Source of the DNA: Chitinophaga chungangae
GTDB lineage: Bacteria > Bacteroidota > Bacteroidia > Chitinophagales > Chitinophagaceae
NCBI RefSeq assembly: GCF_017742215.1
Contig: NZ_JAGHKP010000001.1
Coordinates: 62,001 to 126,000 of the forward strand
Length of the DNA: 64,000 nucleotides
Reading direction: 5' to 3'
Part shown: positions 46,133-64,000 of the stretch, in pieces
How the letters are laid out: every line of letters begins with the position of its first letter
Numbering within the stretch: position 1 is the first letter of the stretch
Program-made: the position numbers and the translations under genes
Notes under the pieces: generated by a model
Database searches by the model: none
The model's input: the letters and a program-made list of their open reading frames with translations, nothing else
What the model was told of the DNA's origin: nothing

Positions 46133-46726
46133 ATGATTGATCAGGTATTGAGTGCAATCATTAGTAAGCTGAATACGTATATCGGTACCCTAGACCCCGA
46201 GGTAACTCCCGGGAACATATCTTTTGCCGATGCTTTCCAGGATACGCCCTCGCAAAACCTGACCGACAAGATCGTAGTGTCCGTCGTGAACATCCAGCAG
46301 GAAGAAAGCCTGCGCAACATCCCGTTCCGCCGCACCGTAACCGTGGCGGGCCTTCCGCAGGGCGTTGAGCAGCAGGCGGAGATCTATCTCAATGTGTATG
46401 TGCTGTTCAGCGCGAACAAAAACAATTATCTCACGGCGCTGCAACGCATTTCACAGGTGATCGCGTTTTTCCAGCGGCAGTTCGTTTTTACCCCGGCGGA
46501 CACGCCCGTGCTTTCGGCGCTGAATCTCAACAAACTCATCTTCGACCTGTACAGCACGCGTTTTGAAGAACTGAACCAATTGTGGAGCGTGATGGGAGGG
46601 AAATACATTCCTTCCGTTATCTACAAAATGCGCATGGCCGTGATACAAGACGCACCGGTGAGCGATGCGGGCATTATTACCGAGATCAATCTGCAATCCC
46701 AGATACTGAGTACACAATCCGAATAA
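46133..46726 (+). CDS. eCIS tail terminator/cap protein (Pvc16-like, DUF4255)
   Basis: A 197-residue DUF4255 protein, the family of Pvc16/Afp16, which caps the distal end of the sheath-tube complex in extracellular contractile injection systems. Marks are MIDQVLSAIISKLN at the N-terminus, the central VVSVVNIQQEESLRN followed by a QQAEIYLNVYVLFSANK strand pair, and YLTALQRISQVIAFFQRQ. Many Bacteroidota eCIS loci begin with this gene, as here. It is the first of at least 15 co-directional genes with short gaps. Confidence 0.88.
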   Translation: MIDQVLSAIISKLNTYIGTLDPEVTPGNISFADAFQDTPSQNLTDKIVVSVVNIQQEESLRNIPFRRTVTVAGLPQGVEQQAEIYLNVYVLFSANKNNYLTALQRISQVIAFFQRQFVFTPADTPVLSALNLNKLIFDLYSTRFEELNQLWSVMGGKYIPSVIYKMRMAVIQDAPVSDAGIITEINLQSQILSTQSE

Positions 46727-46735
46727 CCTTCCGTC

Positions 46736-47491
46736 ATGGAAAAAATTGTTTGGCGATACATCCCCGAATTCAGGATCAGTATCCGTATAAACGGCGCCGA
46801 TCCCGGAGAAACTTTCCGCCTGCGCCCTTCACCGGCAAGCGCGGAAACGGTCCGCAACTACGGCCTGCTCACGCGCACCGTGCCCGGCGGGCTGGTAGCA
46901 TACATGAAACAGCACCACAACGGCGTAACCTGGGTGCCGGCGGCGCCCATCACGCAGCCCATTCTTTTTTCTTTCTGGTTAACCGTCAACAGCGGCCAGC
47001 CTTTTCCCTCGATAGATTTTTTTGAAACGGGCGCGCAGCAACTGGGAAGAAAAATATTCTACGCCAATAATCTTTCCGCCGCCGGCGCGATAGACGCCAA
47101 CCTTGCCGCTAACACCGTGGTGCTTACCGCAGCCGCGGCGGCCGGAAACGCCGAGCAGGGCGCGCTGAGCGGCCTGTTGTTGTCCAAACGCGTAACGCCC
47201 GGCGCATTCACGCAGATAAGAGCGGGAAAGATCGCGGCGGGCGCGCCGGTGAGCTTTACGCTGAACGATCCTATCGCCGCCACCCAGGAATCGGTGGGGC
47301 TGGACCTTCGCCTGTTGCCCGGAGGCGCATACGTGGTGCGGCTCGAAGGCGGCGCACCGGTGGAAGAACGTGTGGTGTTCGACCAGCGCGCGGCGGGCGG
47401 GGAAGTGAGCGGCATGATCGACATCTATAAAAATGTATGGCATATGGCTCCGCAGCCGCGGGAATACAGCATTAATTTCTTAAGTACTTGA
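46736..47491 (+). CDS. Uncharacterised eCIS operon protein
   Basis: A 251-residue protein between the Pvc16-like gene and the first sheath, 9 bases from the former. It starts MEKIVWRYIPEFRISIRING and contains TQPILFSFWLTVNSGQPFPSIDFF, an Ala-rich middle (ANTVVLTAAAAAGNAEQGAL) and a beta-rich end with YKNVWHMAPQPREYSINFL. No signal peptide or membrane segment, and no motif I can name. Position next to the cap protein suggests an accessory part of the distal end, comparable to the cap adaptor described in the Algoriphagus system; this is inference from gene order only. Confidence 0.75.
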   Translation: MEKIVWRYIPEFRISIRINGADPGETFRLRPSPASAETVRNYGLLTRTVPGGLVAYMKQHHNGVTWVPAAPITQPILFSFWLTVNSGQPFPSIDFFETGAQQLGRKIFYANNLSAAGAIDANLAANTVVLTAAAAAGNAEQGALSGLLLSKRVTPGAFTQIRAGKIAAGAPVSFTLNDPIAATQESVGLDLRLLPGGAYVVRLEGGAPVEERVVFDQRAAGGEVSGMIDIYKNVWHMAPQPREYSINFLST

Positions 47492-47506
47492 TTAAACTGA
47501 TTGCAA

Positions 47507-48952
47507 ATGTTAAACCTAGCAAACCTCAAAACACCCGGCGTTTATATCGACGAGGTGCCCAAATTTCCGCCCTCCGTGGCGCAGGTCGAAACGGCCATTC
47601 CCGCATTTATCGGGTACACGCGTTTAACCACTCTCAACGGTGAATCGCTGATCAACAAGCCCGTGCGCATCACTTCCCTCGTGGAATACGAAGCTATTTT
47701 CGGCGCCCGGCTCGAAACGTTCACCGCCGCCGTGAACACCGTTACCGGCGTGAACGTGGTGGCTACGCCGCCCGCCGCGCCCACGGCTTTGTACAGGATG
47801 TATTATGCCCTGCAGATGTATTTCTCCAACGGCGGTGGCCCCTGCTACATCGTTTCCATCGGAGCTGACACTACCAATCCCACCACGTTGCTGAACCATA
47901 CCGCCGGGCTGGCCGCCATCGGCAAGGAAGACGAGCCCACGCTGCTCGTATTCCCCGACGCGCTTTCGCTTGCCCGCGGCGATTTTTATAATCTTTACAG
48001 TCTTGCCCTCGCGCAATGCGCCGATCTCAAAGACCGCTTCGCCATCATCGACGTTTTCAACGGTCACCTCGACTACACCATTCCCGCCGGCGACAACGTG
48101 ATAGACGACAATACCAACGGTTTCCGGACGCTCATCGGCAACAGCAACCTGCCTTACGGCGCGGCCTATTACCCGCAGCTGGAAACTTCATTGTCCTTTA
48201 ACTACAATGAAGAAGCCGTAGCCATCACCGGTACGCTCAACGGCGCGCCCGTTGTGGCCAACTCCGTGCTGCGTTTATTCGAACCGGCGGATGCGGCGGC
48301 CGAAGCGCGTTCGTTGTATCATGTTTCCAACAAACTGTATCACGAAATAAAAAACGCCATCACGGCAATGCCGCTGGTGCTTCCGCCGAGCTCCGCCATC
48401 GCGGGCGTTTACGCGACGGTAGACAGTACGCGCGGCGTGTGGAAAGCGCCCGCCAACGTAAGCCTGCGTTTTGTGCGCCGCCCGATGGTGGCGGTAGACG
48501 ACGCTTCGCAGGAGAACCTGAACGTGCACACCACCGGCAAATCCGTGAACGCGATACGCACCTTTAGCGGGAAAGGCATACTGGTATGGGGCGCGCGCAC
48601 GCTGGCCGGCAACGATAACGAATGGCGTTATGTGAGCGTTCGCCGTTTCTTCAACATGGTGGAAGAATCCACCAAAAAAGCGACCGAGCCTTTTGTGTTC
48701 GAGCCGAACGACGCCAATACCTGGATCAAGGTGCGCGCGATGATCGAGAATTTCCTCATCCTGCAATGGCGCGCGGGCGCATTGGCCGGCGCAAAACCGG
48801 AGCACGCCTTTTATGTGAGCGTGGGGCTTGGCCAAACCATGACCGCGCTGGACATACTCGAAGGAAGGATGATCGTGGAGATCGGCATGGCGGTTGTTCG
48901 CCCGGCTGAGTTCATCGTACTCCGCTTCAGTCATAAAATGCAGGAATCTTAA
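47507..48952 (+). CDS. Contractile tail sheath protein 1
   Basis: A 481-residue sheath subunit (Pvc2-4 family). The N-terminus LKTPGVYIDEVPKFPPSVAQVETAIPAF is the sheath family entry, needed for strand exchange between subunits; the C-terminus has GVWKAPANVSL, the GKGILVWGARTLAGND block and RPAEFIVLRFSHKMQES, the core handshake region. I start at ATG 47507 rather than TTG 47501. A second, longer sheath gene follows 21 bases later and shares long stretches of identical sequence in the core. Confidence 0.95.
   Translation: MLNLANLKTPGVYIDEVPKFPPSVAQVETAIPAFIGYTRLTTLNGESLINKPVRITSLVEYEAIFGARLETFTAAVNTVTGVNVVATPPAAPTALYRMYYALQMYFSNGGGPCYIVSIGADTTNPTTLLNHTAGLAAIGKEDEPTLLVFPDALSLARGDFYNLYSLALAQCADLKDRFAIIDVFNGHLDYTIPAGDNVIDDNTNGFRTLIGNSNLPYGAAYYPQLETSLSFNYNEEAVAITGTLNGAPVVANSVLRLFEPADAAAEARSLYHVSNKLYHEIKNAITAMPLVLPPSSAIAGVYATVDSTRGVWKAPANVSLRFVRRPMVAVDDASQENLNVHTTGKSVNAIRTFSGKGILVWGARTLAGNDNEWRYVSVRRFFNMVEESTKKATEPFVFEPNDANTWIKVRAMIENFLILQWRAGALAGAKPEHAFYVSVGLGQTMTALDILEGRMIVEIGMAVVRPAEFIVLRFSHKMQES
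48426..48465 (+). repeat. 40-base tract shared between the two sheath genes, copy 1
   Basis: Identical without mismatch to 50472-50511; both encode TRGVWKAPANVSL. Marks recent duplication or gene conversion between the sheath genes. Confidence 0.85.
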
Positions 48953-48973
48953 TCATCAATAATCTGAACGATC

Positions 48974-50998
48974 ATGGATTATAAAACCCCGGGCGTATTC
49001 GTAGAGGAGCTGCAGCTCATTCCGCCGTCTGTAGCCTCCGTTGCCACGGCCATCCCTGCCTTTATCGGCCACACCGCCGTAACGGCCGATCCCAAAGGCG
49101 CCACGCTGGTGAATGTGCCCATCCGCATCACTTCCATGCTGGAATACACCACCGTTTTCGGCGGCGGTTATTCGCCCGCTTCGTATTCCATCAGAACGGA
49201 CGCGCAATTCAACATCACCAGGGTTACGCCGGTGAACGGCAGGAGATACCACCTCTTCGACGCCATGCAACATTATTTCGATAATGGCGGCGGCCCCTGT
49301 TACATCGTGACCGTAGGCGACTATGCGGCGGACATCATCCTGGGAACTGCTACCACCGGTCTTTTGGGCGGGCTCAGGGCGCTGGAGAAAGTAGACGAGC
49401 CTACGCTGCTCGTTGCTCCGGACAGCGTGTCCCTTCACCTGCCGGACGGCGGCGCCGATTATACCAACGGCGGCAACTTCCACCAGGCGGTGATCGAACA
49501 ATGCGCGCGTTTGCAGGACCGCTTCGGCATACTCGATATGCTGGGCGGCGGCCTTCCGCTGAACCATGCCGACGATCCGATCACCCGGTTCAGAACGGGC
49601 GTGGGCAACCAGGAATTAAAATATGCGGCGGGTTATTATCCCTGGCTGCAGACCTCTTACCTGAAAGACGTCAGTTTTTCGCAGCTCAATATCGTAGACA
49701 ATGCGGACGTTGCCGTGCCGGACGCCACCATCGATACCATGACCGGCAACCCCGTGCTGGATGCGCTGGTGACCGATCTGCGCGCACGTTTGCTGGAAGA
49801 GAACCGGGTATTCGGAAAGATCGCGGCGCCGGTGCTGAACCGGGGAAATTACAACCCGATGTCTGCCCACCTCACGCGATTGCGTGCGGACGTAGCCGCC
49901 GCGGGCACTCCCGCACAGGCGCGCACTGCTTTTTCCGCCCTCATGACATTTGTGCGCAGCCTCGCGCTTTCCCTCCGCGACCTGGAAGACGATGCCGGCA
50001 ATTCCCCCGCCATGGTGCATGTGATCGAAGGGCTGAAAGCCAGTACGGCGTTGCGTACGCAGATCATCAACCTGGTCGCTTTTGAAAAGAACCAGCATGT
50101 GCGTGCGTCTATCGCCGCCGCCCGCAGCGAAGCGAACGTGGATACGGATTATACGCCGTTCGATCTGCAGGACTGGGTGGCCGGCGCGGCCATCAACACG
50201 ATCGGCGCGAACGCCACCAACTTCGACGGCGGCACCGTGCCGGCCACGGCCATCAACGCCGCCAATGCGGCCATGCTGCAAACCGCTTTCGAAGCGATCT
50301 CCGGCGCGTACGTCGCCATACTGCAGGACGCGATCTTCAGAACGGACCAGGCGCAGCAGCTGCTGTTCCTCAAACACCCGTTCTTCAAAGCCGTATACGA
50401 ACGCGTACGCGCGGAAATGAGCCTGCTGCCGCCTTCCGGAGCCGTGGCCGGCATTTACGCCGCAACAGACCGTACGCGCGGCGTGTGGAAAGCGCCCGCC
50501 AACGTAAGCCTCCGCTCCGTGATAACGCCCGCCTACAAACTGACGGACCAGGAACAAAGTTCGCTCAACGTGCATGAAACAGGCAAATCCATCAACGCCA
50601 TCCGCGCGTTCACCGGCAAAGGCATTTTAGTGTGGGGCGCGCGCACGCTGGCTGGCAACGACAACGAATGGCGCTACATCAACGTAAGGCGTTTCTTCAA
50701 TTACGTGGAAGAATCCACCAAAAAAGCGTCTGAGCCGTTCGTGTTCGAAGGCAACGACGCCAATACCTGGGTTCGCATCCGCGCGATGATAGAAAATTTC
50801 CTGACGCTGCAATGGCGGCAGGGAGCGCTGGCCGGGGCTACCACCAAACAGGCTTTTTATGTGAAAGTGGGGCTGAACGAAACGATGACCGCATTGGATA
50901 TTCTCGAAGGAAGACTGATCGTCGAAATAGGCATGGCGGCCGTTCGCCCTGCCGAATTCATCGTGCTGCGTTTCAGCCACAAAATGCAGGAATCCTGA
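48974..50998 (+). CDS. Contractile tail sheath protein 2 (long form)
   Basis: A 674-residue sheath subunit, about 190 residues longer than sheath 1. The N-terminus (YKTPGVFVEELQLIPPSVASVATAIPAF) and the last about 200 residues (from GVWKAPANVSLRSV to RPAEFIVLRFSHKMQES) match sheath 1 closely. The extra length lies between roughly residues 255 and 460 and is predicted helical and Ala-rich (LVTDLRARLLEENRVFGKI, SALMTFVRSLALSLRDLED, LQTAFEAISGAYVAILQDA). In sheath folds this place is the outer, surface-exposed domain. It may form a specialised ring (for example at the baseplate) while sheath 1 makes the body. Confidence 0.94.
   Translation: MDYKTPGVFVEELQLIPPSVASVATAIPAFIGHTAVTADPKGATLVNVPIRITSMLEYTTVFGGGYSPASYSIRTDAQFNITRVTPVNGRRYHLFDAMQHYFDNGGGPCYIVTVGDYAADIILGTATTGLLGGLRALEKVDEPTLLVAPDSVSLHLPDGGADYTNGGNFHQAVIEQCARLQDRFGILDMLGGGLPLNHADDPITRFRTGVGNQELKYAAGYYPWLQTSYLKDVSFSQLNIVDNADVAVPDATIDTMTGNPVLDALVTDLRARLLEENRVFGKIAAPVLNRGNYNPMSAHLTRLRADVAAAGTPAQARTAFSALMTFVRSLALSLRDLEDDAGNSPAMVHVIEGLKASTALRTQIINLVAFEKNQHVRASIAAARSEANVDTDYTPFDLQDWVAGAAINTIGANATNFDGGTVPATAINAANAAMLQTAFEAISGAYVAILQDAIFRTDQAQQLLFLKHPFFKAVYERVRAEMSLLPPSGAVAGIYAATDRTRGVWKAPANVSLRSVITPAYKLTDQEQSSLNVHETGKSINAIRAFTGKGILVWGARTLAGNDNEWRYINVRRFFNYVEESTKKASEPFVFEGNDANTWVRIRAMIENFLTLQWRQGALAGATTKQAFYVKVGLNETMTALDILEGRLIVEIGMAAVRPAEFIVLRFSHKMQES
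50472..50511 (+). repeat. 40-base tract shared between the two sheath genes, copy 2
   Basis: Identical to 48426-48465. A second shared tract of 24 bases is at 48659-48682 and 50705-50728. Confidence 0.85.
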
Positions 50999-51034
50999 TC
51001 ACCATTGATAATTAACATCCAAAAACCATAAGTT

Positions 51035-51466
51035 ATGGCGAATTATCCGCTTCCCAAATTCCACTTCCAGGTTGAATGGGGTGGTGCAAGCATCGGGTTC
51101 ACAGAAGTGTCCGGGCTTGACGTACAGACCGATCCCATCGAATACCGCGACGGCGCTAACCCCGAATATGTGAAGACCAAAATGCCCGGCATGCAGAAGT
51201 TCAGCAACATCACCATGAAACGCGGCACCTTCAAAGGCGACAACGAATTTTACACCTGGTGGAATACCGTGGCCCTCAATACCATCGAACGCCGCAACGT
51301 GACCATCAGCCTGCTTAACGAAAACCACGAGCCGGTGGTGGTATGGAAAGTCAAGAACGCCTGGCCTATCAAGGTGCAAAGCACCGATCTGAAGGCGGAC
51401 GGCAACGAAGTGGCGATCGAGTCGATCGAGCTGGTACATGAAGGTCTTGTGATCCAAAACGAATAA
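51035..51466 (+). CDS. Inner tube protein 1 (gp19-like, Pvc1/5 family)
   Basis: A 143-residue phage tail tube family protein. FHFQVEWGGASIGFTEVSGLDVQTDPIEYRDG at the N-terminus, the PGMQKFSNITMKRGTF segment and the C-terminal strands IKVQSTDLKADGNEVAIESIELVHEGL are the gp19/Hcp-like tube pattern. Such subunits stack as hexamers inside the sheath. It is followed 5 bases later by a second, longer tube gene. Confidence 0.94.
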   Translation: MANYPLPKFHFQVEWGGASIGFTEVSGLDVQTDPIEYRDGANPEYVKTKMPGMQKFSNITMKRGTFKGDNEFYTWWNTVALNTIERRNVTISLLNENHEPVVVWKVKNAWPIKVQSTDLKADGNEVAIESIELVHEGLVIQNE

Positions 51467-51471
51467 CGGTT

Positions 51472-51984
51472 ATGTCTGCATTCGACACCCCGCAGGTCGG
51501 GTTCCATTTCCTGGTGCTGTTCGAAATACTGCCCCAGTTTCCCAACGATGTGCGTTTCCAGGAGGTATCCGGGCTGAGCGTGGACATCGAGATGGAAACG
51601 AAGCCCGAAGGCGGCGAGCACCGTTTCGTGCACAACCTGCCCGTGCGCACCAAATACAGCGACGTAACGCTGAAGCGCGGGAAATTCCTGGGCTCCGGCA
51701 TCCTGCACTGGGCGCGGCAGGCGATAGACGAATTTAAGTTCAAACCGAGCAACGTCATGATCTCCCTCATGAATGCCGATCATGTGCCTTTATATAACTG
51801 GTACCTGGTCAACGCCATTCCCAAAAAACTGGAGATCAGCGGCATCAACGCCGGCAGCAATGAGATCGTGGTGGAAACGCTGGTATTGTCTTACCAGTAC
51901 TTCAAATACTACGACCCCGTAAGCGTGGCGCTCGACCTGGCCGCGGGGCTTACTGCTTCGGCAGACATTGGTATCAGCATCTAA
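51472..51984 (+). CDS. Inner tube protein 2 (gp19-like, tube initiator candidate)
   Basis: A 170-residue relative of tube protein 1. It keeps FHFLVLFEILPQFPNDVRFQEVSGLSVDIEME, KYSDVTLKRGKFLG and the end KKLEISGINAGSNEIVVETLVLSYQYF, and has extra residues at the C-terminus. In PVC-type systems one tube paralogue (Pvc5) forms the layer next to the spike; size and position make this one the likely counterpart. Confidence 0.92.
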   Translation: MSAFDTPQVGFHFLVLFEILPQFPNDVRFQEVSGLSVDIEMETKPEGGEHRFVHNLPVRTKYSDVTLKRGKFLGSGILHWARQAIDEFKFKPSNVMISLMNADHVPLYNWYLVNAIPKKLEISGINAGSNEIVVETLVLSYQYFKYYDPVSVALDLAAGLTASADIGISI

Positions 51985-51996
51985 AAAACGCAACAC

Positions 51997-52185
51997 ATGC
52001 CCATCGAAATTCGTGAACTGGTGATCCGCGCACGCGTGGAAGAAAAAACGCCGCAAACCGCATCTGGCGGCAGCGGCGGCTCCGCGTCCCCTTCACGGGG
52101 AATGAACGCCGCCGACATGCAGCGGATCGTGGCCATGTGCGCGGAAGAAGTGATCAAAGCGCTCAAACAACAAAAAGAACGATAA
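51997..52185 (+). CDS. DUF5908 family small eCIS protein
   Basis: A 62-residue protein that begins MPIEIRELVIRARVEE, the hallmark of DUF5908, has a Gly/Ser/Pro-rich linker (TASGGSGGSASPSRG) and ends in an amphipathic helix (ADMQRIVAMCAEEVIKAL). DUF5908 genes are found in Bacteroidota injection loci between tube and LysM genes, as here, at the place of pvc6. Function is not known. The next gene starts 3 bases after the stop. Confidence 0.85.
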   Translation: MPIEIRELVIRARVEEKTPQTASGGSGGSASPSRGMNAADMQRIVAMCAEEVIKALKQQKER

Positions 52186-52188
52186 ACA

Positions 52189-52965
52189 ATGTTTGATTCC
52201 TTATTTGGCACCGGCAAACTGGAGAAGATGATCATCGTCGCCTTCCAGCCCGTTCAGAACGCGGGCGATACGCCTGTGCTGAGCAACGCCGATGAGGACA
52301 AGTACAGCGTGCAGGTAAACCCGGACAATTACACCATTAATTACCAGGTGAACTACGACCACTCGCCCGCGCCCGGCGACGCGGGCAGCGAAGCGAAATA
52401 TGTAAGCACCTCGCCCCCCGCGCTGGAATTTACTTTCCTGTTTGACGGCACCGGCGTGATACCCCCGCCTGCCGGCCCTCTGGACAACGTGCCCATCGCG
52501 GGCGCCGTGGCAGGGCTGTTCAGCGGCGACGAACCGTACGACGTGAGCAAGGAGCTGTACAAGTTCGCACATGTTGTTTACACGTACGACGGCACTGGCC
52601 ATTCGCCGCGCAGGGTACAGCTTACCTGGGGCAAACTGGTGTTCGAAGGCGTGCTTAGCAGCCTGAGCCTCAACTATAAACTGTTCGGGCCAGACGGTTC
52701 GCCGCTGCGGGTGGAAGCCCGCGTTACCTTCGACGGCTCTATTGCAGACAGGCTGCGCGAGCTGGAACAAAACAACTCTTCGCCAGACCTTACGCATGTG
52801 CGGAAAGTGGTGGCGGGAGACAATATCCTGCTGATGAGCCACGGCATTTACGGCACGCCCAATTATTATATCGAAGTGGCGAAAGTGAACAAGTTGTACA
52901 ATTTCAGGCAACTGCGGGAAGGACGGGAAATTTTCTTCCCCCCCGCTAAAAAAACCAAAACATGA
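52189..52965 (+). CDS. LysM-containing tube-spike adaptor (Pvc7-like)
   Basis: A 258-residue contractile-injection tube protein. The N-terminal part (YSVQVNPDNYTINYQVNYDHS and the long strand-rich middle ending LRVEARVTFDGSIADRL) is the CIS tube domain, and the last 50 residues are a LysM module (RKVVAGDNILLMSHGIYGTPNYYIEVAKVN...). In PVC and Afp this protein links the tube to the spike hub. Its stop overlaps the spike gene start by 4 bases (ATGA), as expected for subunits made together. Confidence 0.92.
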   Translation: MFDSLFGTGKLEKMIIVAFQPVQNAGDTPVLSNADEDKYSVQVNPDNYTINYQVNYDHSPAPGDAGSEAKYVSTSPPALEFTFLFDGTGVIPPPAGPLDNVPIAGAVAGLFSGDEPYDVSKELYKFAHVVYTYDGTGHSPRRVQLTWGKLVFEGVLSSLSLNYKLFGPDGSPLRVEARVTFDGSIADRLRELEQNNSSPDLTHVRKVVAGDNILLMSHGIYGTPNYYIEVAKVNKLYNFRQLREGREIFFPPAKKTKT

Positions 52966-54698
52966 GCAGCGCCGGATTATTACCGATAGAACAGGATACC
53001 AGCCTGGTGACCTTCACGGTGAACGTGAACGGGCAGCCTATTCCCGGCGATATTCCCGTGCATGCCATTTCCATTTACAACGAGGCCAACCGCATTCCTT
53101 CCGCGCGCCTGGTGATCACAGACGGCAGCGCCGCGCTCGGCGACTGGCCCGTCAGCAACCAGGGGTTTTTCCTTCCCGGCAACGAGATCGAAATACTGGC
53201 GGGGTATCATAGCGTGGAAGAAGTGATCTTCAAAGGCATCGTTACCCGCCATTCCCTGCGCGTGCGCCAGCAGCGGTCTGAGCTGATAGTGGAATGTAAA
53301 GACAAAGCGGTGATGCTCACCATCGGCCGCAACAGCGCGGTGTACGAAGAAATGAAAGACAGCGGCATCGCTTCAGCCATTCTCGATAAAGAAGGGCTCA
53401 CCGGCGACGTGGAAGACACGCCCGTAACGCACGCCGAAATGGTGCAGTACGACTGCACGGACTGGGACTTCCTCATCAGCCGCATCGAATCTGTGGGCTT
53501 TATTACCATCGCCCATGAAGGAAAGATCGATGTCAAAAAACCCGTGGTAGACGCCGCAGGCCTGGCCACGCTACGTTACGGCACGAACCTCATCGAGTTC
53601 GACGCGGAGATAGACGGCAACCACCAATACGGCAGCGTAAAAGCGCAGGCCTGGGACCCCGCGGGGCAGGCCCTGCTGGAAGCGGAAAGCAACGATCCCG
53701 GATGGGTCACGCCCGGCGATCTCGATCCCGCTGAATTCGGCATCCCGCTGTTTACCGTGCGGCAAACCGGCAGGATGAGCGAAGAAGAAGTGCAGCACTG
53801 GGCCGACGCGCGCGCCTTGCGCAGCCGCATGGCATTCATGTGCGGAAGAGCGCGGGTGCAGGGTTTCGCGAAAGCGCTGCCCAACATTACCGTGACGCTC
53901 GAAGGCCTGGGCACGCGTTTTAACGGCATGGGCTGGGTGAGCGGCGTGCGCCACGAGATCAGCTACGGCAACTGGCTGTGCGATCTTCAACTGGGCATGA
54001 CGCCCGAACTGCACGCCGAAAAGTTCGACCTGCAGGCGAAGCCCGCGGGCGCATTATTGCCCGGCATCAACGGTTTGCACATCGGCGTGGTTACCGCGCT
54101 GGAAGGCGATCCCGACGGCGAAGGGCGCATCCGCGTAAAAGTGGCTTCCGTAGACATGGAAGGCGAAGGCATCTGGGCGCGCATTTCCACGCTCGATGCA
54201 GGCAGCTCGCGCGGCAGTTTTTTCCTGCCCGAGGTAAACGATGAAGTGATCGTAGGTTTCCTCGACGACGACCCGCGTTACCCCGTAGTGCTCGGATCGC
54301 TCAACAGCAGCGCAAAAGCCGCGCCCCTCACGGCGGCGGACGATAACCACGAAAAAGGTTTCATCACCCGCAGCGGTATGCGCATCCTTTTCAACGACGA
54401 CAAAAAAATACTCACGATAGATACGCCCGGCGGCAACATGGTGGTGATGGACGAAGACGCGAAGGAGATCAAACTGGAAGATCTGAACGGCAACAAGATC
54501 GTTTTGTCCGCAGACGGCATTACGGTCGAAAGCGCGAAAGACCTGGTAATGAAAGCCGGCGGCAGCGTGAAGCTCGAAAGCTCCACCGGGTTTGAAGTAA
54601 AAGCCGGCACACAGTTCAAAGCCGAAGGCTCGGCCGGCATGGAGATCAGCTCGAGCGCCATTACGGTGATCAAAGGTTCGCTGGTACAAATAAACTAA
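52962..54698 (+). CDS. Central spike protein (VgrG/Pvc8-like)
   Basis: A 578-residue spike protein. The N-terminal part (to about 365) is the gp27-like hub fold (VTFTVNVNGQPIPGDI, LVITDGSAALGDWP, LIVECKDKAVMLTIGRNS). A gp5-like OB domain follows (about 365-460: IGVVTALEGDPDGEGRIRVKV, LPEVNDEVIVGFLDDDPRYPVVLGS). The C-terminal part is a repetitive strand region (KKILTIDTPGGNMVVMDED, DLVMKAGGSVKLESS) that should form the trimeric needle shaft. It sits on the LysM protein and below the PAAR tip encoded next. Confidence 0.94.
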   Translation: MSSAGLLPIEQDTSLVTFTVNVNGQPIPGDIPVHAISIYNEANRIPSARLVITDGSAALGDWPVSNQGFFLPGNEIEILAGYHSVEEVIFKGIVTRHSLRVRQQRSELIVECKDKAVMLTIGRNSAVYEEMKDSGIASAILDKEGLTGDVEDTPVTHAEMVQYDCTDWDFLISRIESVGFITIAHEGKIDVKKPVVDAAGLATLRYGTNLIEFDAEIDGNHQYGSVKAQAWDPAGQALLEAESNDPGWVTPGDLDPAEFGIPLFTVRQTGRMSEEEVQHWADARALRSRMAFMCGRARVQGFAKALPNITVTLEGLGTRFNGMGWVSGVRHEISYGNWLCDLQLGMTPELHAEKFDLQAKPAGALLPGINGLHIGVVTALEGDPDGEGRIRVKVASVDMEGEGIWARISTLDAGSSRGSFFLPEVNDEVIVGFLDDDPRYPVVLGSLNSSAKAAPLTAADDNHEKGFITRSGMRILFNDDKKILTIDTPGGNMVVMDEDAKEIKLEDLNGNKIVLSADGITVESAKDLVMKAGGSVKLESSTGFEVKAGTQFKAEGSAGMEISSSAITVIKGSLVQIN

Positions 54699-54704: not shown

Positions 54705-54995
54705 ATGTCTTTAGCAGCAAGAGTAGGCGATATGCACGTTTGCCCGATGGTGACGGGAACGGTGCCCCACGTGGGCGGCCCGGCCCTTCCGCCCGGCGGC
54801 GCAACGGTGCTGATCGGCGGCGCGCCCGCTCTCCGCGTGGGCGATATGTGCACCTGCACCGGCCCGCCGGACATAGTGATCAAAGGCTCCGCGACGGTCT
54901 TGATCGGAGGGATGCCGGCGGCCAGGATGGGCGACAGCACCGCGCACGGCGGTTCCATCATATTAGGCTGCCCCACCGTGCTGATCGGCGGATAA
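54705..54995 (+). CDS. PAAR-domain spike tip
   Basis: A 96-residue PAAR protein that sharpens the spike and normally holds a metal ion at its tip. The repeated pattern ..G.ATVLIGG.PA.R.GD (33-47 and 61-77) and CP.V..G.....GGP at the start are typical, and Cys residues (CP, CTC, GCP) and His (MHVC, AHGG) are candidate metal ligands. It has no C-terminal extension, so it carries no toxin fused to it. Pvc10 is the positional counterpart. Confidence 0.95.
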   Translation: MSLAARVGDMHVCPMVTGTVPHVGGPALPPGGATVLIGGAPALRVGDMCTCTGPPDIVIKGSATVLIGGMPAARMGDSTAHGGSIILGCPTVLIGG

Positions 54996-55112: not shown

Positions 55113-55514
55113 ATGCCCCAGGAAAATGCTTTTCTCGGAAGAGGATGGAGCTTCCCGCCCGTCTTTTCCAAACTGGACAAAGAAGTGAAAATGCTCGAAG
55201 CGGAAGAAGACATCCGCAGCAGCATCTCCCTGATCCTCTCCACGGAACTGGGCGAACGCGTTATGCAGCCCGGCTTCGGCTGGAAGCGCGACCGCTGGCT
55301 GTTCGAATCGCTCGGCACCACCACCGCCACCGCCATCCAGCATGAGATCAGGACCGCATTGCTGCTGTACGAGCCGCGCATCGACCTCAACGAAGTGAAG
55401 CTGCTGCCCGAAGACCGCGAGAACGGAAAAGTGAGCATTCATGTGGATTATACCGTTCGAAGCACCAACAGCCGCAGCAACCTGGTATTTCCTTTCTATT
55501 TAACCGAGAAGTAA
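55113..55514 (+). CDS. Baseplate wedge protein (gp25/gpW family, Pvc9-like)
   Basis: A 133-residue gp25-like protein. DIRSSISLILSTELGERVMQPGFGWK is the family's central motif (with the ERVM.PGFG block), followed by TATAIQHEIRTALLLYEPRIDLNEV and the beta-strand end VSIHVDYTVRSTNS. In T4, T6SS and eCIS this small subunit nucleates sheath assembly on the baseplate. A 117-base gap with no ORF separates it from the PAAR gene, the largest gap inside the operon. Confidence 0.94.
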   Translation: MPQENAFLGRGWSFPPVFSKLDKEVKMLEAEEDIRSSISLILSTELGERVMQPGFGWKRDRWLFESLGTTTATAIQHEIRTALLLYEPRIDLNEVKLLPEDRENGKVSIHVDYTVRSTNSRSNLVFPFYLTEK

Positions 55515-55515: not shown

Positions 55516-58500
55516 ATGAGCCTTGCCAGTAAAAATATTCTCCAGTACCTGCTGTCTACCGACGGCGTGAACCAGAACGCGCGCGTGCAGCCCGCGCTGG
55601 ACCCCGCCACCGTGAAGATAGACGGGCGCAATACGAGTGAACTGGTACGCTTTGTTCACCAGATGGCGGCGCAGGTTAATTATTACGACGAAAACAAAAT
55701 GCCGCAGGGCGACTGGCAGGCTTTTTTCGATCTCGTAAAAAACATGGGAGAGAACGAGCTGCAAACCTTTCTCGCCGCCACCCGCGACCTCAGCCCGCAC
55801 CTCGCTTTGCTGATGGCTTATCTCCGAGTGTATGCCATTGCGCGGGACGATATGAACCTGCTCACCAAAAAACGCCTCGATTATTATTACGAAGAAGTAT
55901 TGCAGCTCAAAAGGAATACCGCAACGCCAGACCAGGTGCATGTGCTGTTTGAGCTTGCCAAAAACGCCGCGCCGCTGCCCATAGAATCAGGCACGCTGTT
56001 CGATGGCGGGAAAACCGCTACGGGACTGCCTTTGCATTATTCTCTCAACAACGACCTGGTGATCACTCAGGCGCAGGTGGGCATGCTGCGCAGCAGTTTT
56101 ACCGAATATTCCCCCAACAACAAAGGCATCGTTTTCGCCGCGGCGGACGCAACGAAAGTATTGAACACTACCGCCACGGCATTCAGGCCCTTCGGCGCGC
56201 GGCAGCTCTCTTCCCCGGTGGAATCGAGGCGGATGCAAACCGCTTCTCTCGGCTGGGCCGTTGCTTCACCCAACTTATTCCTCGCCGAAGGACTGCGGGA
56301 AATTTCCATGAAGCTGCGCCTGAAATCCCTGGCGGGATTTAAACACCCGCTGCAGATCTTTTCCCCTTTCTTCGAAATACAACTGACCACCGAAAAAGAA
56401 TGGCTCAAAACCGGGATGGTAACAAAAGTGGAACTGAAACCAGACCTCCCGGTGCCCAGCCAGTCAGACATATTGCAAAACGATTTTACGCTGGAAGTGA
56501 CCTGCACGCTCAACGAATCGCTGCCCGCGGTAACGGCTTACAACGAAGCGGTGCACGCGGGATCGTTCATCACCGCATGGCCCGTGATGAAAGTGCTGCT
56601 GCTGCCGGACAGTTACCTGATGGAAACCTTCAGGAATTTTACGGTGGAAAACGTTTCGCTCGGCGTAAACGTAAGAGGAGTAAAAAACCTGGTGCTGCAA
56701 AACGACCAGGCCCTGCAGCCGTCGGACAAACCGGTGATTCCCTTTACGGCGCAGCCGCTGATCGGTTCCAATTTTTACATCGGCAATTACGAGATCTTCA
56801 GCAAAACGTTGAAGTCGCTCAACATACGGCTGGAATGGCAGGATGCGCCGGCCGACTTCGGTTCGCATTACGCCAATTACGGCAGCGAGGAAGTACCCAG
56901 CGCCAGCAGTTTTCACGTAGCGGTGGACCTGCTCAGCAACCGCAACTGGAACACGCGGCTGCTGCATACTTTCCCGATTTTCGACGCTGCCAGTACCGCG
57001 AACCCGAAAGACCTCACGATCAATGAATTTACGTTCTCGCTCAGGACCGCCGCCGCGCCTTTCGTGCGCGACCCGGCGCTGCAGCTGGGCGCAGGTTTTA
57101 CCAATACGGTGAACCAGGGTTTCCTGCGCGTGGTGCTTACCGGCCCCACCAAAGCAGAACTTGGCAACACCGCGTCTGAAGCGCCTTTTGAAGCCTTCGG
57201 CCACAAAGCGTTTTCGGCGGCTTACACCAAACAGGTGATCGCATTGAGCAAACATACGGGCAGCAGCCTCACTGCGCCGAAACTGCCCAAGCCGCCGTAT
57301 ACGCCTACGCTGAAGTCCGTAAACATGAGCTACTCCGCGCTGGACGTTTTCCGCCCGGACGCGCCCAACGGCATCGACCAGTTCTTTTTGCAGGACGTGT
57401 TCGGTCCCGCCGAATCGCAGAAAAGCGACGTTGCCCCGCTGATGCCCGTGCAATCGGGAGACGGCGCGCTGTACATCGGGCTGGAGAACGCCAATGCACC
57501 GCAATCCGTGTCGTTATTGTTCCAGGTGGAAGAAGGCAGTGTGGACAGCGATGCGCTGCTCAACAGCAACGATCTTCACTGGAGCTACCTGGCCGGTCAC
57601 CGCTGGCAACCCGTGGCGGTGGCGGATATTCTCGAAGAAAGCACCGCCGGTTTCCAGAAGCCGGGCATCATCCGGCTCAACATGGGCGGCGATGCATCCG
57701 TTCAGCACAGCCTGATGCCCGCGGGCATGCGCTGGTTGCGCGTGCATGTGACCGACAATCCCGGCGGCGCGGCGGCCATCGGTAAAATAATGACCCAGGC
57801 CGGCACGGCCACGCTGGTGCTGCCCGGGACCGGCGCGGAAGGATATGAAGCACATCTCGCATCGCCGCTGGCGCCGAATGTTGTCAGCAAACTGGTGCGC
57901 AAGGTGCCCGCTTTGAAAAAAGTATTGCAGCCTTATCCGTCTTTCGGGGGGCAGCACCCCGAGGCGGACACCGCATTTTACCGCCGCGTGAGCGAAAGGC
58001 TGCGGCATAAGAACCGCGCGTCTTCCGGGTGGGACTACGAAAAATTATTGCTCGAATATTTCCCGGAGATATTCAAAGTGAAATGCCTGCCGCATACGGA
58101 TACCGAAGACTGGTTCAGGCCCGGCAACGTGCGCCTGGTAGTGGTGCCGGACTGGCGGAAACGCCCTACCGGCGATCCGCTCCAGCCGAAGGTCAATCTG
58201 CAGCGCCTGCGCGAGATCGGTACGTACATGAACGAAACTTTCACTTCCCCCTTCGTAAAACTGCACGTTACCAATCCCGTATACGAAACGTTGCTGGTGG
58301 ATTGTAAAGTGAGTTTCCACCCAGAGTTCGATCCGGGTTATTACGCCGTTGTGCTCGAAGAAGAGATCAAAAAATTTCTCAGCCCCTGGGCGTACCGCGA
58401 AGGGCAGGACATTATGTTCGGCGGCAAACTGCACGCTTCCGAAATTCTTGCATTCATCGAAGGGCGAGGGTATGTGGACTTCATCGTCGATTTCGAATTG

Positions 58501-58812
58501 TACCACCGGCATAACAGCAACATCGGCGGCGGCATCGGCGAAATGCAGATCGGAACAGATTTTATCATCGGTTTTTCGCTGGAGCCATCCGTGTCCGACA
58601 CGGCGACCGGTCTTGGCGGAAAGGCCATCGGCGTGGATTTCGTGATCGGCGAGCCGGTGGATGTGGCGGCGGCTACCAGGCCAGATACTATCCTGGTGTC
58701 CAACACGGAGCATCGTATCGAAGCGTTGCAGGCGGGCGCGTCTGTTTGCCAGGGCACCCAGATCGGCATCGGGCAAATGATCATAGGACTTGATTTCATC
58801 ATTATTTCATAA
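55516..58812 (+). CDS. Baseplate J-like wedge protein (Pvc11-like)
   Basis: A 1098-residue large baseplate protein, beginning 1 base after the gp25-like stop. The N-terminal part has DPATVKIDGRNTSELVRFVHQMAAQVNYYDENK and VLFELAKNAAPLPIESGTLFDGG. The C-terminal part carries the J family signature: YEKLLLEYFPEIFKVKCLPH, LVVVPDWRKRP, LREIGTYMNETFTSPFVKLHVTNPVYE and LSPWAYREGQDIMFGG. After this come about 95 residues with three copies of G-x-DF-[IV]-I (GTDFIIG, GVDFVIG, GLDFIII). Together with the Pvc12-like protein it should form the baseplate wedges. Confidence 0.92.
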   Translation: MSLASKNILQYLLSTDGVNQNARVQPALDPATVKIDGRNTSELVRFVHQMAAQVNYYDENKMPQGDWQAFFDLVKNMGENELQTFLAATRDLSPHLALLMAYLRVYAIARDDMNLLTKKRLDYYYEEVLQLKRNTATPDQVHVLFELAKNAAPLPIESGTLFDGGKTATGLPLHYSLNNDLVITQAQVGMLRSSFTEYSPNNKGIVFAAADATKVLNTTATAFRPFGARQLSSPVESRRMQTASLGWAVASPNLFLAEGLREISMKLRLKSLAGFKHPLQIFSPFFEIQLTTEKEWLKTGMVTKVELKPDLPVPSQSDILQNDFTLEVTCTLNESLPAVTAYNEAVHAGSFITAWPVMKVLLLPDSYLMETFRNFTVENVSLGVNVRGVKNLVLQNDQALQPSDKPVIPFTAQPLIGSNFYIGNYEIFSKTLKSLNIRLEWQDAPADFGSHYANYGSEEVPSASSFHVAVDLLSNRNWNTRLLHTFPIFDAASTANPKDLTINEFTFSLRTAAAPFVRDPALQLGAGFTNTVNQGFLRVVLTGPTKAELGNTASEAPFEAFGHKAFSAAYTKQVIALSKHTGSSLTAPKLPKPPYTPTLKSVNMSYSALDVFRPDAPNGIDQFFLQDVFGPAESQKSDVAPLMPVQSGDGALYIGLENANAPQSVSLLFQVEEGSVDSDALLNSNDLHWSYLAGHRWQPVAVADILEESTAGFQKPGIIRLNMGGDASVQHSLMPAGMRWLRVHVTDNPGGAAAIGKIMTQAGTATLVLPGTGAEGYEAHLASPLAPNVVSKLVRKVPALKKVLQPYPSFGGQHPEADTAFYRRVSERLRHKNRASSGWDYEKLLLEYFPEIFKVKCLPHTDTEDWFRPGNVRLVVVPDWRKRPTGDPLQPKVNLQRLREIGTYMNETFTSPFVKLHVTNPVYETLLVDCKVSFHPEFDPGYYAVVLEEEIKKFLSPWAYREGQDIMFGGKLHASEILAFIEGRGYVDFIVDFELYHRHNSNIGGGIGEMQIGTDFIIGFSLEPSVSDTATGLGGKAIGVDFVIGEPVDVAAATRPDTILVSNTEHRIEALQAGASVCQGTQIGIGQMIIGLDFIIIS

Positions 58813-58831
58813 TTGTTTAAAAACTTTCATC

Positions 58832-59884: not shown

Positions 59885-59887
59885 ACC

Positions 59888-62800
59888 ATGGACGAAGCAA
59901 CCCACATCTTTGCCGGGCCGCCGGAGATGAAGAGCCAGGATTTCGCCTTTCTCCGCGAAGAAGGCATGCAGTTCCTGCGCAATGTGGCAGCCCTCAGCTG
60001 GACGGACCACAACCTGCACGACCCCGGCATTACGCTCCTGGAAGCGTGCTGTTACGCCATTACCGAAATGGGCCTGCGCAGCGGTATGCCTATGCGCGAC
60101 CTGCTTGCCAGCGATGCGAACGGCCGCCCGCAGGACTTCGTGACCGCAGCCAGCATCCTGCCGGTGGCGCCTGTCACGCAAAAAGATATACGAAAGATCC
60201 TGATCGACCACCCGATGGTGCAAAACGCCTGGGTATTCCCGCTGGAATCCGAGCCAGCCGGCAAGATCAAAGTATTGCTGGAGTTTGCGGAAAAACAGCT
60301 CAACAATAACAACTTCGCCGTTACCGTACTGCCCCCGATGCTCGGCTTCAACGTGGAAGCGGATATCGCGCTGCCGTTCTGGGACGAGGAAGACGCCCGC
60401 CCCTTCGCCGAGAACGTTACGCTGCAGAACGTGACCTTCCAGGCATTCGCTCCCGGCGTGTTCTGGACGCCTATCGAAGGCACCACTTCCTTTTTCGCGC
60501 GCATCACCGTGCAATACCAGCCGCCCGTGGGGCCAGTGGCCAACCGCGACCTTTCCGTGGTGGCGCAGATCAATACCGCGCTGCCGGACCCGCTCACGCA
60601 GAACCCGCTCGTGCTCGACGAATTGATGACCCTCATCGGTACGCTGGGCGACAATTCGCCGGCAGACCAAACGCTGCTGAAAGAATACAACCGATGGGTG
60701 ACGCGCGCCAACACCGCCGTCCGTACCATCCAGCGGCATATGACCGCGTATCGCAACCTCTGCGAAGACTTTTCCGCGTTCAAAGCCGTGCGCCTGCAGG
60801 AAGTGGCCGTTACTGCCAATATCGACGTGAACGCCGGCGTGCTGCTCGAAGACCTGCTCGCCGATATTTTCCTCAGCATCGACCGATACATCACGCCCGT
60901 AAACCTGTTCCGCAGTCTTACCGATCTGCAGCCTGAACTGGGAGCAGATGAGATCTTCGAAGGCCCGCAGATGGCTTCAGGCTTTTTGCCGGACGATGCG
61001 CTTACCGCTACCAACCTGCCCGAGCACGTATTCACTTCAGACATCCTGCGCCTCATTCTCCAGCACCGCGACCAGCGCATCACGGACGTGGAGCAGCGCG
61101 AAGACGTGACCAGCCGCCGCATCAGCGCCGTGCGCAATCTCAGCCTCGCCCTGTTTATGGACAACCGCGTGATCACCACCAATGCGCGCGATGCGCTTTG
61201 CCTCATCAACAGCCAGCAGCATGTGCCGCATCTCAGTCCTACCAAATCGAAGATCGTTTTTTACCGGAACGGGCTCATGGTGCCTTACGATCTCGGCCTT
61301 GCCATCACACTGTTCGAAGAACGCAAGCTGGAACAGCTCAACCAGCCCGTGACCGGCCCGGACGATATTGCACTGCCCACCGGGGACAACTATCCCGTAT
61401 CATCTTATTATCCCATCCAGGAAGACCTGCCGGTGGTGTACGGCGTCGGCTCCGCCGGCCTGCCCGATTCCGCCACGCTTGCGCGGCGCGCGCAGGCTTT
61501 GCAGCTGCAGGGGTATCTTTTCTTTTTTGAACAGCTCACGGCGGGGCTGGCCAGTCAGCTCGGCAACCTGAACGCATTTTTTTCCGCCGCGCCGGATGAG
61601 GAAAGGACCATTTTCCAGCAGCCGCTGTACAACCTGCCGCAGGCGGCGCAATTGCTGCGCGCGTATAATCCGGCTACCAGTTTCGACACATTTAAAAACG
61701 ACGAGAACAATAACTACCGTACTGCGCTGCGGCAGGCATCCGAAAACAAAGACCAGTTCCTCGCGCGGCGCAACCGCGTGCTGAACCATTTGCTGGCGAT
61801 GTTCGGCGAAGACATGTACGATACCATTTCGCTGGCGTACCACGAAGCGTCGATAGTGCCCAATGCCGCATCGTTATTGCTGCCGCAGCTGTTGCAAATA
61901 CAGCAGGCGCAGCGCGACCAGGCTTCGCAGCAGCTGATCCGCGAGAAGTCCGCTTTTTTCCGCGACCTGCCTTCGCTCAGCAGGCACAGGGCGCAATCGT
62001 TCGGCAATCCCGTGTGGAATGCCGCGCATCTTTTGCAGGTATTCCCGTTGCAGGGCGCATTCGGCTGGCATTTGCGGGACGCTTCCGGCGGGCCGGTGCT
62101 GCGCCATGCAATGCCGGTTTCTTCTGAGGCCGTTGCGAGGATGAATGCCGCCACCACTATGGCGCTTGCTAAATTCAGCGCCAATTTCAGCACGGTACCG
62201 GAGCCCGACGGTGTGAACCTGCGCGTGCAGCTCAAGCCGCATCCAGATGAAGACGCAGTGGCAGTAACGCTTGCCGTGTTTGCGAATCCCGCTGCCGCCG
62301 CCACGGCCATCACCGGCATTGTGGACACGATGTTGCAGCATTGGAGAACGTATTCCTACACCCCGCTCGAGCGCCGCCTGCAGCATTTGCTGGAAGTAGC
62401 GGTGAAAGAACGCAGGCCTTTGCTGACCGACCCGGGCGTTTACTTTGAAATTTACGACGAACCGCCGCCGATCCAGAAGATGTTCCGGTTGTGGTCGCTG
62501 CCGGGATTTACCGGCGCGGAACTGCTGCGCAGCACGAACGGCTACGTTGCCGCTACGGACCCGCTGGCCGTTGCAGCCGCCGAAGCGGCCATTCAAACCA
62601 CCATCAGCCGCGGTTTGCATTACGATAATTTTACGATCACGCAGTCCGGCCCGAACTTTTTCGGGGTGGAGCTGCGCCTGCAAGACGGTACGCCGATCGC
62701 TGAAGCGCCGGCGGTATTTGCAAGCCAGGCACAGGCTAAAGCCGCGGTGATGCAGATCTGGCTGCACCTGCACCGTTTTATGAGCGCGGAAGGTTTTTAT

Positions 62801-63229
62801 ATGACGGAGCACCTGTTGCTTGCGCCGAAAGATCCGCCGGTAACGGAGTTGCAGATCAGGGAAGTGAAAGACCCGTATTCTTTCCAGGTCACTTTTATAT
62901 TTCCTTCGGGATATGCGCAAAATTTCAGCGGAGGGCCGCAGGAGCTTTCCCGCCCGGAAAAATACCGCGACCCGGAGTTCCGCAAACATGCGGAGCAGCA
63001 GGTGCGTAAAAGCTGTCCTTCCCACATTTTGCCGCGTGTGTTGTGGGTAGACCGTGAGCTGCCCGGCGCACCGCCCGATTCCCCCAGCTTTGAGAATTTC
63101 GAAACCAGGTACCGGCTCTGGCAGGAAGCGTGGATCACGGACGAAACGAATGAAACGGCGATCAGGCCGTTGCGTAATTCGCTGGTAACGATGCTCAATC
63201 TTATTTACGAAGATTTTGAAAACGAATAA
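59888..63229 (+). CDS. Large baseplate protein (Pvc12-like)
   Basis: A 1113-residue protein, 3 bases after the fibre gene. The segment [35 protein letters not shown] near residues 35-65 is the family's mark; similar loci name the gene Pvc12-like or baseplate. No enzyme motif or membrane segment is seen. The C-terminal part has [14 protein letters not shown] and [14 protein letters not shown] near residues 980-1030. In PVC-type systems this and the J-like protein interlock to make the baseplate. Confidence 0.85.
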   Translation: [1113 protein letters not shown]

Positions 63230-64000
63230 ACATATCATCCAGAAACAGGTGTTCGAAATGCGGGGCTACAGCAAACGTCCCGGTTTTGAATGGGAGCAGT
63301 CTGTGGCGGACCATTACAGGTCGGTGATCGCGCCGGGCATTGAAGAATGTTTCGACGCATTGCCTGTTACGGACGAGCACCTGGTGATCGATTCGATCGA
63401 CATCGACCTGGGCGTGTTTACGCATGAAAGTTTTGTGAACGAAGGGCGGGAACGGCTGGTGAGCTTGCTGGGCGAACATCTGCTGGAATGCCGCAGGAAG
63501 GCGGTTGCGGAGAAGGAAAAGCAGTTGCGCGAAATGGAAGAAAATCCAAAAGAAAATGTCTTTCAAAAAACAGCACCCGAAACATTGCCCGGCGAACAGG
63601 TGCTGGAATTGGAAATGGCGGAGGGAGAGGCGTTGTTGTATTTTCTGAAGGAAGGCAACTTGCCCTGGTGGTTTACCGCGCCGGAGAACCTTTTCACCCC
63701 TTCCGTTCTCTCCAATAAAAGTATTATTCCCCGTTTGCAGCAATTACTGCGTCGCGAAGAAGCCGCCATGATCCGTGCCAGCAGGCATTTTCCGGACGAA
63801 ACGATGTTGGCGCTGCTGGAACATTTTGTGAAAGATTCCGCCATCGCAAAACGCGGGTGGGAAATATTTTCGAAAACCGCGCAACAATATCCGGCCGTCT
63901 TTCCCTTCTTCCGGCAGCGCTTCTGGACGATGTGGCTGCGCGCTAAAGAGGAAATTCCGCACCAGGAAGCGATCACGCATTTGTTCGCGCCATTCGATGA
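63216..64000 (+). CDS. Contractile injection system tape measure protein, N-terminal part (Pvc14-like)
   Basis: Partial gene running off the window; 261 codons are visible without a stop. It starts at TTG 63216, overlapping the previous gene by 14 bases, giving KTNKHIIQKQVFEMRG, the usual start of this Bacteroidota family. Then come LVIDSIDIDLGVFTHESF, a charged helix (LECRRKAVAEKEKQLREME) and YFLKEGNLPWWFTAPE, the most typical motif of the family. The tape measure sets the tube length. Its total length cannot be judged here. ATG 63257 is an alternative start, but it would lose the conserved N-terminus. Confidence 0.85.
   Translation, partial: MKTNKHIIQKQVFEMRGYSKRPGFEWEQSVADHYRSVIAPGIEECFDALPVTDEHLVIDSIDIDLGVFTHESFVNEGRERLVSLLGEHLLECRRKAVAEKEKQLREMEENPKENVFQKTAPETLPGEQVLELEMAEGEALLYFLKEGNLPWWFTAPENLFTPSVLSNKSIIPRLQQLLRREEAAMIRASRHFPDETMLALLEHFVKDSAIAKRGWEIFSKTAQQYPAVFPFFRQRFWTMWLRAKEEIPHQEAITHLFAPFD

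What the first reader, a model, noticed from the sequence alone, without database searches (positions are those of the whole stretch)
46133..64000. Extracellular contractile injection system operon, cut by the window edge
Fifteen co-directional genes with tiny gaps or overlaps encode every structural layer of an eCIS: cap (DUF4255), two sheaths, two tubes, DUF5908, LysM adaptor, VgrG-like spike, PAAR, gp25, baseplate J, self-processing fibre, Pvc12-like protein and the start of a tape measure. Seen directly from sequence and order; PVC, Afp and AlgoCIS are the known relatives. No T6SS membrane complex genes are present. The AAA+ ATPase and toxin cargo must lie beyond base 64000 or elsewhere.
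Basis: partly seen in the sequence, partly recalled or inferred. Interest (0 to 1): 0.85.

Follow-up and report, generated by a model that had tools for sequence, protein, structure and literature searches.

The report
Complete syringe operon in Chitinophaga
This soil bacterium carries an intact gene set for a phage-tail-like protein syringe of a kind already known to be common in its genus; the one unusual part is an operon gene for a protein that looks anchored in the cell envelope.

Summary
Fifteen co-directional genes (46133-64000) and four past the window edge form a 19-gene extracellular contractile injection system (eCIS). All 19 genes are under purifying selection against one sister genome. 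The host is a Chitinophaga by inference; 74 of 79 same-genus genomes searched have the CIS_tube marker, and published work already reports eCIS in 89% of Chitinophaga. The closest solved systems are Anabaena tCIS and AlgoCIS. So this is a new member of a known kind. The less ordinary part is a VWA protein with a signal-like start, conserved MIDAS residues, Ig-like domains and a C-terminal membrane helix (helix and DxSGS in 15 of 15 linked copies read). Print files VWA in eCIS loci as toxin or fibre domain; the topology here suggests an envelope partner. Its role is inferred, its topology rests on hydropathy, and a Micromonospora relative beside CIS genes shows neither feature.

The parts
46133..46726 (+). 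Cap, Pvc16/Alg16A-like, 197 aa
   Evidence: Pvc16_N E 2.6e-32; Alg16A is also 197 aa (PMC8894135, passage)
46736..47491 (+). Probable cap adaptor (Cis16B/Alg16B-like), 251 aa
   Evidence: No Pfam, NCBIfam or PHROG family and no PDB sequence hit below E 0.1; profile match to the genes in the same slot of 7 other loci, probability 94, E 1.3e-7, 20% identity, whose profile matches All3326 5.7e-48 and the AlgoCIS cap adaptor 5.1e-27. AlphaFold model unusable, pLDDT 35
47501..48952 (+). Sheath 1, 483 aa
   Evidence: Phage_sheath_1C; All3325 547 bits, AlgoCIS sheath 523 bits
48974..50998 (+). Sheath 2, longer, 674 aa
   Evidence: Phage_sheath_1C and Phage_sheath_1
51035..51466 (+). Inner tube 1
   Evidence: Phage_T4_gp19 E 3.7e-50
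51472..51984 (+). Inner tube 2
   Evidence: Phage_T4_gp19 E 2.3e-34
51997..52185 (+). DUF5908, Cis6-like (spike plug by analogy)
   Evidence: DUF5908 E 1.4e-17; plug role of Cis6 from PMC8894136 (passage); equating DUF5908 with Cis6 is recalled
52189..52965 (+). CIS_tube/LysM adaptor, Pvc7-like
52962..54698 (+). VgrG-like spike, Pvc8
   Evidence: Phage_base_V E 3.2e-21
54705..54995 (+). PAAR tip
   Evidence: PAAR_motif E 2e-23
55113..55514 (+). gp25 baseplate wedge, Pvc9
   Evidence: GPW_gp25 E 1.6e-23
55516..58812 (+). Baseplate J, Pvc11-like, 1098 aa
   Evidence: Baseplate_J E 1.2e-5; Alg11 410 bits, All3317 405 bits
58790..59884 (+). Short tail fibre with S74 (intramolecular chaperone) domain; likely start 58832
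   Evidence: Peptidase_S74 E 1.5e-11; tail fibre PHROGs
59888..63229 (+). Pvc12/Cis12-like baseplate protein, 1113 aa
   Evidence: All3315 7.5e-64, Alg12 2.9e-55, Pvc12 6.4e-15
63216..64000 (+). Tape measure; continues 751 bases past the window (L002:1216-2751)
   Evidence: CIS_TMP E 4.5e-101 on the full 511 aa
64000..64000 (+). Window edge. Past it (window coordinate = 62000 + L002 coordinate): VWA/Ig/TM protein 64776-67109, eCIS_core protein 67129-68523, AAA+ ATPase 68516-69880, GH46 protein 69906-70580, then M1 peptidase 70745-72622 (flank)

Best explanation
A complete, maintained 19-gene eCIS operon of the tCIS/AlgoCIS-like branch in a Chitinophaga. By analogy with characterised relatives, the particle assembles in the cytoplasm with the AAA+ ATPase, is loaded with the eCIS_core protein (which carries a second HExxH motif, HEFGH, in its C-terminal part) and is closed by a two-part cap. 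On contact through the S74-type fibre the sheath contracts and drives spike and cargo into a target. Shown here by sequence: gene content, order, intactness, selection, and fold and hydropathy of the VWA protein. Inferred: assembly, loading, release, target and cargo activity. The VWA protein is most likely an envelope-anchored accessory (docking, gating or self-protection) rather than cargo; this last step is the least certain.
Against: No expression, imaging or secretion data. Fibre target, release and cargo activity are untested; in AlgoCIS the growth effect of Cgo1 did not depend on its metalloprotease motifs (PMC8894135, passage), so the motif here proves no activity. The cap-adaptor model failed. 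The VWA protein has about 5 residues after its helix, so it cannot reach cytoplasmic particles the way CisA is proposed to. A Micromonospora relative beside CIS genes shows no signal or helix by eye.
Confidence: 0.9

Rival explanations
1. A membrane-attached system like T6SSiv or tCIS: the particle stays docked in the producer's own membrane, with the VWA protein or a Cis12 extension as the dock, and is not set free.
For: Best matches of sheath 1 and Cis12 are Anabaena tCIS proteins. AlgoCIS was classed in subtype Ib with MACs and T6SSiv, and T6SSiv attaches to the inner membrane (PMC8894135, passages). The operon encodes a protein with a C-terminal membrane helix.
Against: The S74 fibre has no hydrophobic segment, unlike tCIS Cis13. 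The VWA protein has almost no cytoplasmic part. AlgoCIS, about as close in sequence, is extracellular.
Confidence: 0.2
2. The VWA protein is an injected effector or a tail fibre, as eCIS surveys would file it.
For: Geller 2021 names PF00092 among presumed anti-eukaryotic effector domains (PMC8213781, passage). A 2026 fibre catalogue links VWA to eBAP4 fibres (PMC12923769, passage). The Micromonospora copy lies next to a DUF6519 gene (DUF6519 = eBAP5 in that paper) and shows no signal or helix.
Against: Hydrophobic C-terminal helix with basic tail in 15 of 15 and signal-like start in 14 of 15 linked copies. Profile A3 finds no CIS component in the PDB set at E 0.01. The operon already has an S74 fibre gene.
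Confidence: 0.15
3. A tailocin or remnant prophage rather than an eCIS.
For: Tail-like sheath, tube, baseplate and S74 fibre.
Against: eCIS_core, CIS_TMP, CIS_tube and the AAA+ ATPase are present; flanking genes are metabolic genes found at the same site in other species; no capsid, portal or terminase domain in the 29 proteins scanned around the operon.
Confidence: 0.01

Closest known systems
Anabaena tCIS (All3315-All3326)
   Same: Best PDB match for sheath 1 and Cis12 and, through the neighbour profile, for the cap adaptor; two-part cap (PMC8894136, passage)
   Different: S74-type fibre without a hydrophobic segment; two sheath genes; a VWA gene in the operon
AlgoCIS of Algoriphagus machipongonensis
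   Same: Cap of 197 aa plus cap adaptor, best Cis11 match, eCIS_core cargo with a predicted metalloprotease C-terminus in Cgo1
   Different: Two sheath genes here, whereas the passages read describe one (Alg2); Alg19 Ig-type fibre there, S74 fibre here; the passages read mention no VWA protein
PVC and Afp
   Same: Same set of layers, several sheaths, AAA+ ATPase (partly recalled)
   Different: Much weaker match (Pvc12 6.4e-15, Afp12 7.5e-6); adenovirus-type fibre domains (PMC12923769, passage); one-piece cap
CisA of the Streptomyces CIS
   Same: A membrane protein encoded in a CIS gene cluster, there needed for firing in the cell (PMC12237407, passages)
   Different: CisA has a cytoplasmic N-terminus that may meet the particle; the VWA protein is predicted the other way round, with a large outside part and about 5 residues inside. 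No sequence comparison was made

Membership tests
eCIS | Contractile sheath and T4 gp19-type tubes | tested here: met
eCIS | Baseplate: spike, PAAR, gp25, J-type and Pvc12-type proteins | tested here: met
eCIS | Pvc16-type cap, CIS_tube adaptor, CIS tape measure | tested here: met
eCIS | Pvc15-like AAA+ ATPase in the operon | tested here: met
   AAA E 4.1e-28, past the window
eCIS | eCIS_core (DUF4157) protein | tested here: met
   E 2.1e-33
eCIS | Tail fibre | tested here: met
   S74 fibre
eCIS | Particles released outside the cell | not testable with these tools
   Needs imaging
T6SS | TssB/TssC sheath | tested here: not met
   No VipB match in the whole genome; E. coli control rings. TssB not searched
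T6SS | TssJLM or Bacteroidota membrane complex | not tested
   Not searched genome-wide; none among the operon genes scanned
tCIS | Cis13 fibre with transmembrane helix | tested here: not met
   The S74 fibre has no segment over the hydropathy threshold; hydropathy only
tCIS | Cis12 extension and Cis19 crown | tested here: inconclusive
   Cis12 matches All3315 in three stretches, the extension was not examined; no search for Cis19 was made
CisA-type membrane adaptor | Cytoplasmic N-terminal region before one membrane helix | tested here: not met
   VWA protein: signal-like start, helix at 754-772 of 777; orientation inferred from hydropathy
T6SSiv | Aasi_0556-type inner-membrane anchor | not tested
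   No sequence compared

The most novel reading that the evidence does not exclude
VWA-Ig proteins are an unrecognised eCIS accessory family that works in the producer's own envelope in Gram-negative hosts: inner-membrane anchored in Chitinophaga, perhaps barrel-anchored in a Thermoanaerobaculia eCIS locus. There they dock, gate or shield against the particle rather than being injected, as print supposes for VWA domains.
Probability: 0.3. Interest if true: 0.6.

Novelty: new member of a known kind. Interest (0 to 1): 0.4.

Why it matters
As an eCIS it adds an intact locus to a genus where eCIS is known to be near-universal. If the VWA protein is an envelope partner, a domain now filed among eCIS toxins or fibres would need re-filing in these loci, and how a producer holds, releases or survives its own particles could be tested by deleting one gene. 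The chromosomal site shared by different eCIS types would also suit a study of eCIS replacement.

Tried and rejected
Cap adaptor by structure: AlphaFold on 12 homologues gave pLDDT 35, so no fold search was made; the assignment rests on profiles alone. Direct PDB sequence searches with the protein and its alignment gave only chance-level hits.

C-terminal GLPxWxxW helix as a genome-wide sorting signal: the DNA pattern gave 4 matches, one of them the VWA gene, against 5 for the backward control, so not supported; looser forms of the motif were not searched.

VWA family outside the genus: profile A3 over 79 handles of eCIS-positive genomes outside the genus gave hits at E 1e-8 in 25 of 79. By the coordinates none lies within 20 kb of a CIS_tube hit on the same contig (nearest: 56 kb in G344); many of these genomes are in many contigs, which limits the test. 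Most open frames there are 333-344 aa (BatA-like is my label); others are 363, 374, 504, 692, 1082 and 2023 aa and were not followed up.

Of its 19 loci, 5 lie by CIS genes (L091, L092, L093, L094, L099). The other 14 gave no match to this operon's other proteins, but several are too short to judge and divergent CIS genes could be missed. The VWA match of L094 was reported (24%, residues 151-720, E 3e-12 relative to candidates); my own tblastn did not list it at E 1e-4, so that kinship is weak.

VIA-align rows span mainly residues 148-497, so the Ig-like domains were barely tested. Foldseek's top row, pilin PitA (E 4.9e-12), has a TM-score of only 0.20.

GH46 as an eCIS component: not accepted; see the full report.
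Full report
Where it lies. The window is C1:62001-126000 of a 6.04 Mb, 14-contig genome. Handle G003, a same-genus genome, has its locus on a contig of 277,938 bases; the same length, and the same place of the VWA match, belongs to Chitinophaga barathri YLT18. The genus is therefore Chitinophaga, by inference.

Content. L002 (C1:124001-144000) carries the operon on: tape measure of 511 aa, VWA protein of 777 aa, eCIS_core protein of 464 aa, AAA+ ATPase of 454 aa, GH46 protein of 224 aa. Spacing is -23 to +36 bases apart from 117 between PAAR and gp25; 164 bases separate GH46 from the next gene, an M1 peptidase. Rfam gave no match at gathering score in 40000-64000.

Is it maintained? Against G003 all 19 genes give dN/dS of 0.02 to 0.20; tape measure (0.196), DUF5908 (0.188), LysM adaptor (0.112) and VWA (0.108) are highest (Nei-Gojobori in my own script, one pair of genomes). 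I fetched 11 other loci of this type (G003, G025, G033, G036, G040, G050, G056, G059, G061, G062, G070) and the shared genes have the same order. Departures: G050 has two VWA genes and no GH46 there; G033 and G040 have an extra unassigned gene and G062 an extra eCIS_core-like gene after VWA; G061 has several extra cargo genes; DUF5908 in G062 and PAAR in G033, G036 and G059 were not called separately by the script.

How common is eCIS here? CIS_tube is found in 83 of 148 genomes searched, 74 of the 79 same-genus ones, own included (my count of its rows). In an even phylum sample it is in 73 of 395, 72 of them above the cut-off. Geller 2021 reports eCIS in 89% of sequenced Chitinophaga (PMC8213781, passages only). 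So an eCIS in this genus is expected.

Closest systems. Sheath 1: All3325 547 bits, AlgoCIS 523. Cis11: Alg11 410, All3317 405. Cis12: All3315 219, Alg12 191. The second gene sits where 7 fetched loci of other types have a 389-414 aa gene (G001 has one of 425 aa, not used), whose profile matches All3326 and the AlgoCIS cap adaptor. The two families match each other at probability 94, E 1.3e-7, 20% identity. It is thus a probable, shorter cap adaptor.

Cargo. The 464-aa protein has eCIS_core at 119-195 and two HExxH motifs, HELTH at 185 and HEFGH at 356. In eight relatives of the same type the match runs on through the C-terminal part (64-87%; the G075 copy carries a stop), while in G033, G040 and G062 it ends at residue 196 and in G050 at 204, so C-terminal modules differ between species. 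It has no PDB sequence match at E 0.1. That it is a protease is inferred from the motif alone.

Is it particular to these loci? Among 20 fetched loci, only VWA proteins have a segment of hydropathy 2.6 or more near an end. Other segments over 1.9 are internal or weaker: in the large eCIS_core proteins of G033, G040 and G062 (2.3-2.6), ATPase (G003, G050), tape measure (G043, G054), Cis12 (G043, G074, G021), an unassigned gene in G061 and eCIS_core of G068. Of the 5 loci without a linked VWA gene, G072, G084 and G001 have none at all. The short S74 fibre is present in 15 of 15 VWA loci; G068 has an S74 hit without linked VWA, and G072, G021, G084 and G001 have neither. These loci are related to one another, so this is not independent evidence.

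Beyond the genus. In a Thermoanaerobaculia contig (L094) a VWA protein with a weak outer-membrane-barrel match (OMP_b-brl E 2.4e-4, under the Pfam cut-off) lies between a collagen-bearing gene and an AAA+ gene followed by an eCIS_core gene; its kinship to the present family is weak (one search lists it, one search does not). In a Micromonospora contig (L099) a VWA protein follows spike, gp25, baseplate J and DUF6519 genes and shows no signal or helix by eye (its true start is unsure). The first supports, the second opposes, an envelope role for the family as a whole.

What print says. Searches for contractile injection with von Willebrand and operon (3 papers), with VWA domain (1) and with von Willebrand factor and membrane (5) list no title about an envelope VWA protein of an eCIS; of these papers I read passages of two only. 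Those two treat VWA as effector or fibre domain. Chen 2019 is not held, nor are preprints. For CisA, tCIS and AlgoCIS I read passages only.

GH46. Relatives are in 23 of 148 genomes: 18 beside eCIS genes, 2 (G012, G032) beside only a tape-measure-like gene of 385 and 377 aa, and 3 (G050, G047, G024) with no other match to this operon's proteins within the 14 kb fetched (G075 by coordinates only). It matches chitosanases in the PDB set (E 2.3e-13). Because it stays at the site with either eCIS type and after loss, I treat it as a resident of the site that may serve the particle, not as a proven part.

The site. AmpP, CDP-alcohol transferase and TP-methylase genes on the left and M1 and patatin genes on the right bracket this eCIS type, a divergent type (G072, G021), or just the tape-measure-like gene plus GH46 (G032, G012). 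For this type the left side was seen in the window itself and, as TP-methylase, in G036 and G056; elsewhere the fetched stretch ends short. ATPase trees group G072, G053 and G021 apart (100/99), while the M1 tree places G021 and G053 with carriers of the present type (83/89) but leaves G072 outside on a long, unsure branch; the GH46 tree does the reverse, with G072 and G015 among carriers and G021, G053, G032 and G012 apart (96/97). This suggests exchange of eCIS cassettes at one site, but the trees do not agree and support is moderate.

Judgement. The eCIS identity is secure and its novelty low. The VWA protein is the part worth following; its location is argued from sequence, its role is not shown.

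Noticed in passing
Window 42787-45941 and L002:8745-11679: The same chromosomal site holds this eCIS, a divergent eCIS (G072, G021) or only a tape-measure-like gene plus GH46 (G032, G012) in other Chitinophaga, suggesting cassette exchange or loss; gene trees are partly in conflict.
   Followed up: partly
L002:8581-8744 (between GH46 and M1): The 10 other fetched loci of this type that have GH46 all carry a 1280-1549 aa eCIS_core protein after it; the window's genome does not.
   Followed up: no
G000 C1:1862970-1863494 (in L090) and C8:1292800-1293327: Two further eCIS_core-like genes lie far from the operon in the same genome, possible orphan cargo; only the first was confirmed by Pfam.
   Followed up: partly
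L062:8237-10498 (G050): A second VWA gene in tandem lacks the C-terminal membrane helix.
   Followed up: no
L068 (G061): Cargo array: six genes matching the eCIS_core protein in one eCIS locus.
   Followed up: no
Window 13137-20396 and 25804-30558: 2419-aa SprA-like gliding/type IX secretion protein (SprA_N E 1.3e-194) and two proteins with CHU_C type IX secretion signals.
   Followed up: no
G075 C1:4603095-4626939 and G077 C1:5884388-5898521: eCIS-locus genes appear split into several pieces in these two genomes, which are scored only 65 and 80% complete; real decay or sequencing error was not decided.
   Followed up: no
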